Positions 6,937 to 44,789 of a stretch of 48,160 bases of DNA are shown piece after piece; positions within the stretch are counted from its first letter, which is position 1; the number at the start of each line of letters is the position of its first letter. The stretch is from positions 1-48,160 of the forward strand of contig JADCEN010000052.1 in NCBI GenBank assembly GCA_020250175.1. The letters are read 5' to 3'. The notes beneath the pieces are model-generated. The model did not search any database. It was not told where the DNA came from and saw nothing but the letters and a program-made list of their open reading frames with translations. The stretch comes from Rhodobacter sp. Its GTDB lineage: Bacteria; Pseudomonadota; Alphaproteobacteria; Rhodobacterales; Rhodobacteraceae. A program made the translations under genes and the position numbers.

Positions 6937-7437
6937 ATGCCTGACACATACTGTACGGCTGATACGACCGATTCGCGGGCATTCCGCGATGCCCTTGGAC
7001 GCTTTGCCACGGGCATCACCGTTGTCACCATTCCCACGCGCGATGGTCCGATGGGCTTCACGGCGAACAGTTTTGCCAGCGTCTCGCTGGACCCGCCGCT
7101 GGTGCTGTGGTCACCCGCCCGGTCCGCCGCCCGCTTTCCCTTCTATGCCGCGGCCCGGCATTATGCGATTCATGTCCTTGGTGCCGAGCAAAGCGACCTG
7201 AGCGGGCGTTTCGTGCGCGGCGGGGCCGGATTTGACGGTTTGGCGCATGAGACGGACGCGAAAGGCGTGCCGGTTCTGCCGCAGGCGCTGGCACGGTTCG
7301 ACTGCCTTCAGGTGGCCACGCATGACGGCGGCGATCATCTGATCATCGTCGGGCGGGTGCTGCGCGTTTCGGCGCGTCCCGGCCAGCCCCTGCTGTTCAG
7401 CCAAGGGGAATACGGGCGCTTTGTGCCGGGGCTGTAG
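6937..7437 (+). CDS. Flavin reductase-like FMN-binding protein
   Basis: A 166-aa single-domain flavin reductase of the short-chain type that supplies reduced FMN or FAD to two-component monooxygenases. Family landmarks are FRDALGRFATGITVVT (about 15-30), GFTANSFASVSLDPP (about 43-57) and the HVLGAEQSDL and GRVLRV segments. The ATG at 6937 was preferred over an upstream one because GGAG lies just before it (6928-6931) and the protein then begins at the domain. No partner monooxygenase is adjacent, so the substrate system is unknown. Confidence 0.85.
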   Translation: MPDTYCTADTTDSRAFRDALGRFATGITVVTIPTRDGPMGFTANSFASVSLDPPLVLWSPARSAARFPFYAAARHYAIHVLGAEQSDLSGRFVRGGAGFDGLAHETDAKGVPVLPQALARFDCLQVATHDGGDHLIIVGRVLRVSARPGQPLLFSQGEYGRFVPGL

Positions 7438-7559
7438 CAGGCTTCGGCCCAACGGGGCCGCCCTGCGACCGACCGTCTGCCCTTGACCGGAATGCCTGAC
7501 AGGGTGCTGCAAAGCATCTCCGCCGCTTGCGCGACAGGCAGATCATCCTGATCCGCCGG

Positions 7560-8375
7560 AAAGGGGGTGCCGTTCCGGGCGGGTCGGGCACCGGGCGGGG
7601 GCTTTGGCCACCGGCTGGACATGGGACGGCGCAGCGATGCGGCAGGGGCGATGGCCCCTGCCAGAGAGACCGGGCACCCCGGAGAACGCTCCTCCGGGCG
7701 GGAGCAGGAAACGCACCGCGTTTCCCCGCCCGCGTGGGACGGTGCCCTGTAGACCGGCAGGTCCAGGAACAGCAGAGGCCAGCGCCCGACCCGGCGGGCG
7801 AGAAGCGCCCGCCGGGGGCGGGTCGGGCAACAAGCGGGGGCTTTTGCCCCCGGCTGGCAGGACGCGACGTTGCGGCGTGGCAAAGGCGATGGCCTTTGCC
7901 ATTGAAGCGGCGAAAATGCTTCCGCCAATCCGGGCGGGAACAGGAAACGCAGCGCGTTTCCCCCGCCCGCGCGCGACGGTACCTTGTAGATCGGCAGGTC
8001 CAAGCGCCACGAAAGGCCAGCGCCCGACCCGGCGGGCGTGAAACGCCCGCCGGGGGCGGGGCGGGCGCTGGCCGGGGGCTTTGGCCCCCGGCTGGTCAAG
8101 GGGCAGCGTGGCGCTGTGGCAGGGGCGATGGCCCCTGCCATGGCAGCGGTGAAGCTGCTTTTGCCCCCCAGGGTGAGATCAGGAAACGCACCGCGTTTCC
8201 CCCGCCCGTGCGCGACGGTACCTTGCAGACCGGCAGGTCCGGGAACATGGCAGGCCAGCGCCCGGCCCAGCGGGCGAGAAGCGTCCGCCATGGGCGGTTC
8301 GGGCACCGGGCGGGGGCTTTGCCCCCTCCGGCGGGCGTGTGGCACGCGCAGCGCGTGATCGGGGCAATGGCCCCG
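7560..8375. repeat. Array A: about 238-bp hairpin-rich tandem repeats
   Basis: Four successive units, the first and last degraded, with GGGGGC cores starting at 7597, 7836, 8074 and 8312 (spacings 239, 238, 238). Each unit carries four palindromes in fixed order. E1: GGCGGGCG/CGCCCGCC arms (7793-7813, 8031-8051). E2: GGGGGCTTTTGCCCCC (7836-7851, 8074-8089, 8312-8326). E3: 9-bp arms around GATG (7641-7662, 7879-7900, 8118-8139). E4: GGAAACGCACCGCGTTTCC (7707-7725, 7943-7961, 8182-8200). E3 has arms GGCAGGGGC/GCCCCTGCC in units 1 and 3 but GGCAAAGGC/GCCTTTGCC in unit 2, so both sides changed together. Long open frames across it are by-products of the repeats. Confidence 0.85.
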
Positions 8376-8941
8376 GCCGGACCACAGCAGGCCCGTGGAA
8401 GAGGTTCCTGCCATCCAGCCAGAAGTCCATGCGGGTGCCACTTTTCAGCAGCCGGTGACATCATCCCGGCCAGGGCGCAGTCCGCCCGTTTTCATGGCCG
8501 GATACAGTCCCACAGTTGCCGCAAGGCGCGGCTGACCGCCGACAGGATGGGCCATATGGGCAGTGAGGGCGGCAAAGCGGCCGCAGACAGTGAAAAAGCG
8601 GATGCCGCGGTCTTTGCCGGACGTCCCCCTTGCGGCAAGACATCCGACGGACAGGGACGTGCCGTCCAAGGCTGCCTCTGCCTTTGTGAAGACGCTGTCA
8701 GATGACGGCAGACTGACGATCCCGCTTCTGCTTTTGGATGGGCAACGTCCGGTCAGCGTGCTGGAACAGCGTCCGGGTGCGCGGCAGGCCGCCTTCCGCC
8801 AGCACCTCGCCCGTCTGGGGTCGGACGGCCGGGTGGCCAGCGCCCCTGCGGCAAGAAAATCCGCTGCCGGATCAACGCCCCGCGCATCGGACAAAGGACT
8901 GGCTGACTGGGTCCATGTTCGGCACGCCGCAGCGAGCACCC
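8376..8941. other. 566-bp stretch without a recognisable gene
   Basis: It sits between array A and the SDR stop codon. An open frame at 8563-8979 on the plus strand and the minus-strand extension of the SDR frame both look unlike known families and overlap each other. The stretch could be remnant DNA. I see no strong terminator, repeat or RNA gene. Confidence 0.4.
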
Positions 8942-9676
8942 CTAGCCCCGACCAAGAAACGGCATGTCGCGGGCCATGATCGTCATGAAGGGCACGCTGA
9001 CATCCAGCGGCAGGCGCGCCATCTGCAACACGGCATCGGCAACCAGCCGCACATCCATGACCGGCTCTGCCTTCATCGAACCGTCGGCCTGCGACACCCC
9101 CTTTGGCATGGCTGCCACCATATCGGTGGCGGCATTGCCGATGTCGATCTGGCCGCAGGCAATGTTGAAGGCCCGCCCGTCCAGCCCCAGGCTGCGGGTC
9201 AGGCCGGTCACCGCATGTTTCGACATGGTATAGGGTGCCGTTCCGGGACGTGGCACTGCGGCCGAGATGGACCCGTTGTTGATGATCCGGCCACCTTGCG
9301 GGTTCTGGCGGCGCATCATGCCAAAGGCGGCGCGCGCCGTCAGGAACATGCCGGTGATGTTGACGCCGCACAGCGCCAGCCAGTCCGTCACCGCAATTTC
9401 GTCAATCGGCGCAGCCTTGAGCGACATGCCCGCATTGTTGAACAGCACATCCAGATGCCCCCACTCCGCCGCGATCTGCCCGAAAGCGGCATCGACCGCT
9501 GCCGGGTCCGTCACATCGCAGGGCAGGATCAGCGCCGGATTGCCGCCCGCCGTCTGAACCAGCGGCACCTCGCGCCGGCCGATCAGCGCAACGCGCCAGC
9601 CCGCCGCGATAAAGGCGTGCGCCGTGGCCCGCCCGATGCCGCTGCCGGCCCCGGTGATGACGATCCCCTGTGGCAT
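8942..9676 (-). CDS. Short-chain dehydrogenase/reductase (SDR)
   Basis: A 244-aa classical SDR, an NAD(P)-dependent oxidoreductase. Visible motifs are the nucleotide-binding ITGAGSGIG (about 6-14), NNAG in the middle, the catalytic Ser in NGSISAA, and YTMSK giving the Tyr-x3-Lys pair. The ATG at 9676 is preceded by a GGGGGGCGGG stretch and starts exactly at the Rossmann fold; the open frame upstream is not family-like. It lies 202 bp downstream of a xylonate-dehydratase-like gene on the same strand, so a sugar or sugar-acid substrate is possible, but the substrate cannot be read from the sequence. Confidence 0.88.
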   Translation of the reverse strand: MPQGIVITGAGSGIGRATAHAFIAAGWRVALIGRREVPLVQTAGGNPALILPCDVTDPAAVDAAFGQIAAEWGHLDVLFNNAGMSLKAAPIDEIAVTDWLALCGVNITGMFLTARAAFGMMRRQNPQGGRIINNGSISAAVPRPGTAPYTMSKHAVTGLTRSLGLDGRAFNIACGQIDIGNAATDMVAAMPKGVSQADGSMKAEPVMDVRLVADAVLQMARLPLDVSVPFMTIMARDMPFLGRG

Positions 9677-34250: not shown

Positions 34251-34301
34251 CCAGGCCGGTCTGCCTGAATTCATGCGGAAAAACCGTGGCAAGGGCGCGT
34301 C

Positions 34302-34330
34302 TTGCGCCGGGGGCACCCCGCCCCTATATT
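34302..34330 (+). promoter_or_regulatory. Sigma70-type promoter of ssrA
   Basis: TTGCGC (34302-34307) and TATATT (34325-34330) are separated by 17 bp, the ideal spacing. They lie just before the inferred 5' end of the tmRNA precursor near 34336. Confidence 0.7.
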
Positions 34331-34335
34331 GCGAC

Positions 34336-34660
34336 TGTCCGGGGTAACCCGGACTATGGCGATAAACGCACCCGTAATACGCGGATCGGACCCGGGGGCG
34401 GTACCCGGCGGCTCCACCAGACCAACCCGGCATTGCGGGCGGATGGGGCCGAAACAGGATCGACGAACGTCCAAAGGGGCCAGCTTTCGCTCGGCGGGGT
34501 ACCACCGTTATCGGTCCAAAAGTACAGTTGCCAATGACAACCGTGCTCCGGTGGCGCTGGCTGCGTAAGCGGCTCGCAATACCAAACATAAGCCCTTGCG
34601 CTTAGCCGCGTAAGGCGGGGTTCGCAGGTACCTGGCAACAGAAACCTGCACTTCCCCGCT
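34336..34660 (+). ncRNA. ssrA: Permuted two-piece tmRNA
   Basis: tmRNA frees stalled ribosomes and adds a degradation tag. The gene is in the permuted order of Alphaproteobacteria. First comes the acceptor piece, ending with an encoded CCA at 34417-34419. Next is a 25-base spacer that is cut out. Then the coding piece begins GGGGCCGAAACAGG at 34445. GGGGCCG pairs with CGGCTCC near the CCA to form the 7-bp acceptor stem. The tag frame at 34530-34568 reads ANDNRAPVALAA and ends in TAA. Pseudoknot-like pairing follows (GCAGGT with ACCTGC, GCGGGG with CCCCGC). The outer 5' and 3' ends are estimates. Confidence 0.93.
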
Positions 34661-43302: not shown

Positions 43303-43780
43303 AGTCGGATACGCCAAGGCGGGCTGTTTGTTCGGGCAAGATGCGGCGCAGGGCGCTGCGGATCGGTGCCTGAACGGCACCCTTCCCGGCAATTCCCTGT
43401 CATGGCACGCATCATTGCGGTTCTGTCCCGGATGACAGAGCTGCCATCCATTCAATCGCACGTCAGCCCAGAAGGACGACGGGCAAGCCTGTGGCCTTGC
43501 GGCCGGTCGGTCCGCGAAAGTGCGCTGTGGCCCTGCGGCCCAAGCCACGCCTCCGGCGGCGAAACTCATTTGCGGGCAAACAACCCGGCAGGGGCGACCA
43601 TAGCGGTGACGGCCCGGTAAACACAATGTGTTTTTTCCCCGCCGGCCGGTCCTGGCGGATCCTGGCCGGTTTTGGTGGCATGCGGGCGTGCCCCTTTCAG
43701 GGTGCTGAACGTGCCTGGCGCAGGGGATGCTGAAGGGAACGCAAGGCACGCGTCCGCCTGCGCGCGGCCCGCGCTGGCGG
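43303..43780. other. 478-bp stretch without a recognisable gene
   Basis: This lies between the rne leader and array B. Minus-strand frames through it are open only as part of the repeat region and have no family-like content. AACACAATGTGTTTTTT near 43619-43635 resembles a very small hairpin plus T-run, but the loop is too short for a normal terminator. The rne promoter should be on the left side. Confidence 0.4.
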
Positions 43781-44700
43781 GCCGGGGTCAACGCCCCGGC
43801 CCTGCGCCGCACCTGCCGCATGACCGCCGGGGGGCAAAGCCCCCGCCAGCACCCGCCGGGTCGGGTGCCCGCCGGTCGTGGTACGGGGTGCGGGGTGCGA
43901 TGGTCTTTGCCAAACCGTCGCGCAGGGGCGGGGGAAACGCGGTGCGTTTCCCTGTCCGCCCGGAGTAAAGGCGGGACTGCGTCACTGCCATGGCAGGGGC
44001 CATCGCCCCTGCCACAGCGCCTCGCTGGGATCAGGTCCAGCCGGGGGCCAAAGCCCCCGGCCAGCGCCCGACCCGCCCCCGGCGGGCGCTTCTCGCCCGC
44101 CGGGTCGGGCGCTGGCCTGCGTTGTTCCTGGACCTGACGATCTACAGGGCACCGTCCCGCGCGGGCGGGGAAACGCGGTGCGTTTCCTGTTCCCGCCCGG
44201 AGGGACGAAAGCAGTATCACCGCTTCAATGGCAGGGGCCATCGCCCCTGCCACAGCGCTGCGCTGTCTCTCGGCCAGCCGGGGGCCAAAGCCCCCGGCCA
44301 GCGCCCGCCCCGCCCATGGCGGGCGCTTCTCGCCCGCCGGGTCGGGCGCTGGCCTGCGTTACGCTGGGTGAGAGGGTCTTTGCCGTACCGTTCCGCAGAG
44401 GCGGGGGAAACGCAGTGCGTTTCCTTATCCCGCCCGGAGAGGGTGCAAACATTAGCCTCGAGCCTTCCCCGCGCGTCTATGGCAAAGGCCATCGCTTTGC
44501 CAAGCCGCAACGCCGCCTCCCACCATCCGGGGGCCAAAGCCCCCGGCCAGCGCCCGCCCCGTCCCGGCGGGCGCTTCTCGCCCGCCCGCCGGGACGGGCG
44601 CTGGCCTGCGTTGCGCTTGGTCGAACAGTCCTGCTGGAAGGCGGTCGCACATCGGGCGGGGAACAGCGCCGCATTTCCCTGTCCGCCCGGATGGGCAACC
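43781..44700. repeat. Array B: inverted-orientation copy of the array A repeat family
   Basis: The same hairpins as array A appear in reverse order and orientation. E2 cores start at 43830, 44043, 44280 and 44529 (spacings 213, 237, 249). E3 copies are at 43992-44013, 44230-44251 and 44481-44501. E4 copies are at 43933-43951, 44169-44187 and 44406-44424. E1 is most complete at 44061-44115, where CCAGCGCCCGACCC pairs with its 14-base complement around the inner GGCGGGCG/CGCCCGCC stem. In the third copy ACCC/GGGT is replaced by TCCC/GGGA, again with pairing kept. The last unit is degraded. Open frames on both strands are repeat by-products. Confidence 0.85.
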
Positions 44701-44789
44701 CTTGGTCCGGACTTGGGCTGGATGCGCTCGCCCGGGCGGTGGTCGGAGCCTTCTTCAGCAGCCACGCGCGCCCCCCGGGCCCCGCCGGT

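What the first reader, a model, noticed from the sequence alone, without database searches (positions are those of the whole stretch)
7560..8375. Array A: tandem 238-bp non-coding units with four conserved hairpins each
Seen: four units with almost constant period (239, 238, 238). Each has palindromes E1-E4 in fixed order plus a conserved spacer around GGCAGGTCC. In E3 the stem is GGCAGGGGC/GCCCCTGCC in two units and GGCAAAGGC/GCCTTTGCC in another, so paired bases changed together. In E1 one copy gains an extra T-A pair. Such covariation suggests selection or copying for structure at DNA or RNA level. I know no named element with this layout. Possible uses include a structured RNA array, a nucleoid-protein or gyrase landing site, or a parasitic repeat.
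Basis: seen in the sequence. Interest (0 to 1): 0.78.

Follow-up and report, generated by a model that had tools for sequence, protein, structure and literature searches.

The report
Jumping DNA carrying repeated hairpin units
The repeats are the stretchable middle of what looks like a small non-autonomous jumping element that has spread through the spaces between genes in a group of Rhodobacter-like bacteria; the layout resembles a few known elements, but its large multi-hairpin unit is unusual and also stands alone in another genus.

Summary
In detail: four 238-bp multi-hairpin units at 7571-8385, and a reverse-complement array at 43780-44695. Each array is the middle of a larger element: left TIR, leader, n units, trailer, right TIR (A = 7500-8455, B = 43698-44765). 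The TIR core CAGGSTGCTGAAAAAG matches an IS5-family insertion sequence, apparently complete in another genus (L298) and present as parts in four genomes of this genus. The genome holds at least 42 arrays, none inside a called gene; 4 of 7 genus genomes carry the unit motif. Site B is filled only in G000, site A in four of seven species; unit number differs at an orthologous site. Best reading: an IS5-type MITE with an internal, copy-variable tandem repeat, laid out like BrickBuilt of Porphyromonas gingivalis and pneumococcal BOX. The unit is older: two full units without detected TIRs lie in another genus, and units from four genera show compensatory stem changes. Target-site duplications are not supported for the array elements. 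No RNA-strand wobble preference; no RAYT; no Rfam match at threshold. A function beyond self-spread is not shown.

The parts
7500..8455 (+). Element A: left TIR, leader, 4 units (first truncated), trailer, right TIR
   Evidence: Leader and trailer HMMs plus TIR refinement, length 956; site filled in G001, G004, G005 and without unit in G002, G003, G006
7500..7513 (+). Left terminal inverted repeat of A (CAGGGTGCTGCAAA)
8442..8455 (-). Right terminal inverted repeat of A
7499..7582 (+). Leader of A
   Evidence: nhmmer E 4e-15
7571..7676 (+). Unit 1 of A, truncated (model 125-230)
7689..7920 (+). Unit 2 of A
7924..8162 (+). Unit 3 of A; P5 7931-7969, P6 8015-8073, P1 8072-8091, P3 8118-8139
   Evidence: hairpin positions read with the consensus folds
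8166..8385 (+). Unit 4 of A
8367..8453 (+). Trailer of A
   Evidence: nhmmer E 2.8e-13
43698..44765 (-). Element B, same family, opposite strand, between a response regulator gene and the RNase E gene; no unit at this site in the six other genomes of the genus
43699..43793 (-). Trailer of B
43780..43969 (-). Unit 4 of B, partly decayed
43980..44205 (-). Unit 3 of B
44208..44442 (-). Unit 2 of B
44472..44695 (-). Unit 1 of B
44683..44763 (-). Leader of B, weak
   Evidence: nhmmer E 3.8e-5

Best explanation
The array is the expandable core of a non-autonomous, MITE-like transposable element of the IS5 family. Shown: most arrays start and end in one register, most are flanked by a conserved leader and trailer, the outer ends are inverted copies that match the ends of an IS5-family insertion sequence, the elements are dispersed in intergenic DNA, their presence differs between related species at both sites examined, and unit number differs at an orthologous site. 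Inferred: an IS5-type transposase acting in trans moved the elements; the 238-bp unit multiplied by slippage or unequal recombination; middle units were exchanged or homogenised between arrays. The unit itself looks like an older set of intergenic palindromes, present without detected TIRs in at least one other genus, that was captured between the TIRs (inferred). The hairpins are most likely kept at DNA level or inherited from the captured module (inferred); a cellular role is not shown.
For: At least 42 arrays in the genome, none inside a gene called by my own codon-usage script. In this genome and three relatives together, arrays begin at model 1-14 in 87 of 116 cases and end at 210 or later in 83 of 113, contig edges left out. 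Leader at 65 of 99 array starts (own genome 20 of 34), trailer at 87 of 109 ends (own 26 of 34). 31 paired elements by number of unit hits: none 250-251 bp (2), one 336-557 (12), two 548-700 (3), three 625-850 (8), four 885-1067 (6). L298 has the TIR at both ends of about 1.35 kb, with CTAA on both sides; its ORF is IS5 family (NCBIfam NF033581, 243 bits, cutoff 140; PF05598 and PF01609). tblastn with it in the 94 loci L231-L324 hits 9; in 7 a TIR with at most 3 of 16 mismatches lies just upstream: L298, L295 and, in this genus, L311 (G006, cut by the contig end), L315 (G004), L322 and L323 (G005), L251 (G000). Site B: 1068 bp in G000 against 46, 93 and 101 bp between the same flanks in G004, G001 and G005. 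Orthologous elements of 819 bp (3 units) and 626 bp (2 units) share flanks to within 2 bp. The elements hold no Pfam domain in 9 ORFs examined in the window.
Against: Target-site duplications are not supported: 1 of 37 paired elements has an exact 4-bp match, shuffle mean 0.56. No intact partner IS was found in G000: 0 matches of PF05598, and its 5 PF01609 loci carry no TIR pair; in the whole genus 30 of 42 PF01609 and 14 of 14 PF05598 matches were looked at. 34 of 99 array starts have no recognised leader and 22 of 109 ends no trailer. The leader and trailer models were seeded by eye and iterated on the same flanks. Two of the 9 transposase-like loci (L314 in G002, L324 in G005) have no such TIR upstream. 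Site B's empty version is not a clean junction: 41-70 flank bases do not align in the three nearest relatives, 182 in G006. Two full units in G208 lack a TIR at up to 2 mismatches, so the unit can exist outside the element.
Confidence: 0.8

Rival explanations
1. The unit is a functional structured RNA (or RNA 3'-end element) that has multiplied; the TIRs are incidental.
For: Cross-genus covariation: 21 cells with changes on both sides against 8.8 +/- 2.2 in shuffles, 0 of 500; low folding energy (z -5.9 for L325; -4.55 for unit A2); enrichment between convergent genes, 12 of 27 arrays against 6 of 59 array-free spacers over 150 bp, Fisher p 0.001; 8 of 8 edge arrays lie in the sense of their upstream gene.
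Against: No G.U preference on this strand: G.T 204, A.C 245. Orientation beside tandem genes 5 same, 4 opposite. No Rfam match at gathering score; in five loci searched by E-value only sub-threshold matches, one of them over an array (L063, 25.8 bits against 77.3). No sigma-70-type promoter-like site and 2 terminator-like sites against 1.4 in shuffles in 7400-8950. Presence at a given site is not conserved.
Confidence: 0.12
2. BIME/REP-type mosaic palindromes spread by a RAYT (Y1) transposase.
For: Mosaic of palindromes; P6 alone or with P1 occurs in other genera.
Against: PF01797 in 0 of 7 genus genomes while the control rang in 5 of 14; the unit is far larger than a REP; most arrays are TIR-bounded.
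Confidence: 0.04
3. DNA landing sites (gyrase, nucleoid protein, replication or segregation mark) selected for the host.
For: Dispersed, palindromic, intergenic; middle units more alike (0.858) than first (0.742) or last (0.754) units in 12 arrays of three or more units.
Against: The unit motif is absent from 3 of 7 species of the genus (G002 has one P6-like fragment); site B is filled in one species of seven.
Confidence: 0.04

Closest known systems
BrickBuilt and MITEPgRS of Porphyromonas gingivalis (PMC4596501)
   Same: Leader, n tandem repeats, tail; intergenic; TIRs like IS5-family elements; repeat number differs between strains; inconsistent TSDs; no Rfam match (abstract, section 5, section 7 part 1 of 2 and section 8 read)
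   Different: Repeat of 23 nt (1 to 22.8 copies) or 41 nt instead of a 238-bp multi-hairpin unit; 19 copies in the strain described instead of at least 42 arrays; unrelated host; full BrickBuilt matched only P. gingivalis, with homologues in P. gulae
BOX element of Streptococcus pneumoniae (PMC3049150)
   Same: Modular boxA-(boxB)n-boxC with a variable number of tandem modules, stem-loops predicted, size varies between strains, 36 of 58 overlapping CDSs take their stop codon from BOX (passages read)
   Different: boxB is a short module (about 45 bp, recalled, not from a call); Gram-positive host; no sequence relation claimed
BIME/REP and RIME-type mosaic palindromes (recalled)
   Same: Intergenic mosaics of palindromes
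   Different: No RAYT found in the genus; arrays bounded by IS5-type TIRs
IS5-family insertion sequence in L298 (G076)
   Same: Identical 15-base TIR core CAGGGTGCTGAAAAA at both ends, CTAA on both sides
   Different: Encodes a transposase; has no 238-bp unit

Membership tests
MITE of an IS5-family element | Terminal inverted repeats | tested here: met
   not found at every array (65 of 99 starts, 87 of 109 ends)
MITE of an IS5-family element | TIRs match an IS that encodes a transposase | tested here: met
   L298 apparently complete in another genus; parts beside a TIR with 2-3 of 16 mismatches in G000, G004, G005, G006
MITE of an IS5-family element | No transposase gene inside | tested here: met
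   No gene called across 42 arrays, low-scoring ORFs wholly inside an array set aside; 9 ORFs of the two window elements without Pfam match
MITE of an IS5-family element | Target-site duplication | tested here: inconclusive
   Array elements: 1 of 37 exact, shuffle mean 0.56, so not supported; but CTAA/CTAA at the IS L298 and TTAG/TTAG at a 160-bp element with the same TIR, L238
MITE of an IS5-family element | Insertion polymorphism between relatives | tested here: met
   sites A and B; the junction at B is not clean
MITE of an IS5-family element | Short length (a few hundred bp) | tested here: inconclusive
   250-557 bp with up to one unit hit; 885-1067 with four
REP/BIME with RAYT | Y1 (RAYT) transposase in the genome | tested here: not met
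   0 of 7 genomes
Rfam structured RNA | Match at gathering score | tested here: not met
   window: none over the arrays; five further loci by E-value: only sub-threshold matches
Structured RNA | Covariation of stems | tested here: met
   Cross-genus set of 13 (8 from one genus): 21 cells against 8.8, 0 of 500; weaker by pairs (8 against 5.5, 23 of 500) and pair types (24 against 21.5, 46 of 500); such shuffles ignore relatedness. Says nothing on RNA as against DNA
Structured RNA | Transcription | not testable with these tools
   no RNA data

The most novel reading that the evidence does not exclude
The 238-bp unit is an old, selected structural module of Rhodobacteraceae (a multi-hairpin DNA or RNA element that stands alone in another genus) which an IS5-type MITE captured and turned into a copy-variable, mobile array, spreading it to dozens of gene ends.
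Probability: 0.3. Interest if true: 0.65.

Novelty: new variant of a known kind. Interest (0 to 1): 0.45.

Why it matters
It adds an alphaproteobacterial case to the few mobile elements known to carry an expandable tandem repeat, with a unit about ten times longer than in the Porphyromonas element. Because unit number differs between orthologous copies and full units without TIRs survive elsewhere, it lets one ask how a structured intergenic module becomes mobile and amplifies. 15 of the 42 arrays reach a contig edge, so such elements may also help to explain fragmented assemblies in this clade.

Tried and rejected
Plasmid or phage origin: no blastn match in either collection. RAYT-driven REP: no PF01797. 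Intrinsic terminators: 2 terminator-like sites against 1.4 expected in 7400-8950. Special targeting of stop codons: element ends fall exactly on a flanking stop codon at 15 of 87 left and 27 of 99 right ends, but 29 of 86 YTRR sites in 22 element-free convergent spacers are stop codons anyway, so nothing special is needed. Local homogenisation within an array: identity 0.784 within against 0.778 between arrays, p 0.26; middle units 0.841 within and 0.851 between. Single pattern matches outside Rhodobacter records: no unit by HMM in 7 of 7 (Burkholderiales, Brevirhabdus, Pseudoxanthomonas, Kutzneria, two Lysobacter, one unnamed bacterium), nor in a Novosphingobium and a further Burkholderiales record. 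The P5-inner row (48 of 220 rows empty because of gaps) is an artefact and is not used. My notebook says 12 own arrays share a flank gene with relatives; recounted it is 10 of 42.

Full report
What is there. The window is one contig (C48) of a 3.89-Mb, 86-contig genome. TRF reports a 238-bp array at 7577-8326 and a 237-bp array at 43893-44621; the second is the reverse complement of the first. One unit used as blastn query gives 108 matches in the genome. In the window and 37 fetched stretches an HMM gives 109 hits at E 1e-5, grouped into 42 arrays, none inside a called gene (genes called by my own codon-usage script, with low-scoring ORFs wholly inside an array set aside). Of the 27 arrays with a gene on both sides, 12 lie between convergent, 9 between tandem and 6 between divergent genes; 15 reach a contig edge. 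Against 59 array-free spacers over 150 bp (6 convergent) the convergent excess has Fisher p 0.001. Nine ORFs across the two window elements have no Pfam match; the next gene after A (8942-9676, minus) is a short-chain dehydrogenase, the gene before it a flavin reductase. Element B lies between an NtrC-type response regulator gene and an RNase E gene.

Natural unit. Rotated to P5-spacer-P6-P1-P2-P3-P4, array starts fall at model 1-14 in 87 of 116 cases and ends at 210 or later in 83 of 113, own genome and three relatives together, so most arrays are whole units in one register. P6 is a 59-nt inverted repeat, P1 and P3 are short hairpins, and the spacer around GGCAGGTCC is conserved.

The arrays sit inside a larger element. 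Printing flanks showed a shared leader and trailer. HMMs seeded by eye and iterated on those flanks find the leader at 65 of 99 starts and the trailer at 87 of 109 ends (own genome 20 of 34 and 26 of 34). The outer ends are inverted copies of CAGGSTGCTGAAAA. A first pass paired 31 elements, a second, with more loci, 37; length grows with unit number, with overlap between classes. The TIR pattern has 42 hits in the genome. Of the 30 hits fetched, 24 have a leader, trailer or unit by HMM, some of them arrays already counted or two ends of one element, and 6 have none.

Source of the TIRs. CAGGSTGCTGAAAAAG occurs exactly in 9 of 198 family genomes, the own one included. L298 (G076) has it at both ends of about 1.35 kb with CTAA on each side; the ORF is an IS5-family transposase (NCBIfam NF033581, 243 bits, cutoff 140; PF05598 and PF01609). 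tblastn with it over loci L231-L324 hits nine loci; seven have a TIR with at most 3 of 16 mismatches just upstream, among them G006 (L311, cut by the contig end), G005 (L322, L323), G004 (L315) and G000 (L251, 41 residues, 61% identity); L314 (G002) and L324 (G005) have none. No intact partner was found in G000: it has no PF05598 match, and its five PF01609 loci carry no TIR pair.

Mobility. Array A's site holds units in G001, G004 and G005 in the same orientation and none in G002, G003 and G006. Array B's site holds no unit in any of the six relatives; between the same flanks G000 has 1068 bp of element and G004, G001 and G005 have 46, 93 and 101 bp, although 41-70 flank bases do not align. 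Ten of 42 own arrays share a flanking gene with an array fetched from relatives; 14 of 15 such pairs agree in side and orientation. One orthologous pair is 819 and 626 bp long, three and two units, with flanks matching to within 2 bp; a third copy beside an orthologous upstream gene is 549 bp. That the named records JADCDI, JADCEL and JADCEF are G001, G004 and G005 is inferred from equal contig lengths. Target-site duplications are not seen: 1 of 37 exact, shuffle mean 0.56.

Exchange between arrays. Own units are as alike between arrays (0.778) as within one (0.784, p 0.26); in 12 arrays of three or more units the middle units are the most alike (0.858) and first (0.742) and last (0.754) units the least. 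This fits homogenisation or recent amplification of middle units, not decay from one founder per site (inference).

Age and structure of the unit. blastn over 198 family genomes gives matches in 15 including the own (only 3 candidates per genome were scored, so counts are lower bounds). HMM confirms nine of the 14 others: G208 has two full units (L325, L342) with no TIR at up to 2 mismatches, G018 has two units (L034, L299) each with a TIR on one side, and G225, G173, G123, G142, G090, G021 and G010 have P6 with or without neighbours; G117, G115, G182, G085 and G218 are not confirmed. In 13 aligned units from four genera (8 from this genus) 92.9% of cells pair and 21 cells carry changes on both sides, against 8.8 +/- 2.2 in shuffles (0 of 500) and at most 9 in slid controls; pairs with such a change (8 against 5.5, 23 of 500) and pair types (24 against 21.5, 46 of 500) are weaker, and the structure came from the own-genus consensus. 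Eleven double changes lie in the four G208 and G018 units, 7 of them in P3. Within the genus P3 clearly exceeds shuffles; in 91 full units P6 has 5 such cells against a mean of 1.1, maximum 4, and P5 3 against 0.8, maximum 4, not borne out for P5-outer and P6 in the larger set. Over all stems G.T is 204 and A.C 245 (p 0.06), so there is no sign that this strand is kept as RNA. Orientation: 5 same and 4 opposite beside tandem genes, but 8 of 8 edge arrays lie in the sense of the known upstream gene (p 0.03).

Comparison with print. The closest architecture is BrickBuilt of Porphyromonas gingivalis (PMC4596501; abstract, section 5, section 7 part 1 and section 8 read). The pneumococcal BOX element is similar in layout (PMC3049150, passages). 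A MITE review (PMC10969869, passages) has no hit for 'tandem' or 'stop codon', and PMC3281130 on Paracoccus elements (passages) has none for TGCTGAAAA. Five searches of the paper library listed no description of this element in Rhodobacteraceae; apart from the passages named only listings were seen.

Verdict. An IS5-type MITE with an internal, copy-variable tandem array: a known kind, a new variant. The open part is the unit, which seems to predate the element and keeps its stems across genera.

Noticed in passing
L190 3196-3342 (JADCCX010000102.1, Methylocystis MAG): A piece of this Rhodobacter-type unit at the end of a contig binned as Methylocystis, from a record with a similar isolate-name pattern; possibly a binning error.
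   Followed up: partly
L035, L041, L045, L036, L327, L328, L331, L337: P6 palindrome, in some cases with P1, as a lone intergenic element in other Rhodobacteraceae genera.
   Followed up: partly
L238 1501-1661: A 160-bp element with the same TIR, TTAG on both sides and no leader, trailer or unit by HMM.
   Followed up: partly
L297, L301, L303, L305, L307, L309 (G067): Six TIR copies in another genus, some followed by a similar stretch, suggesting a further MITE family that uses this TIR.
   Followed up: no
L322 1885-2166 (G005): An element of this family (leader, part of a unit, trailer) lies directly next to a part of the IS5-type transposase and its TIR.
   Followed up: no
L034 P6: The P6 internal loop in one G018 unit holds an extra insert of about 28 bases that looks palindromic.
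   Followed up: no
34298-34652: Alphaproteobacterial (permuted) tmRNA gene, tag ANDNRAPVALAA.
   Followed up: no
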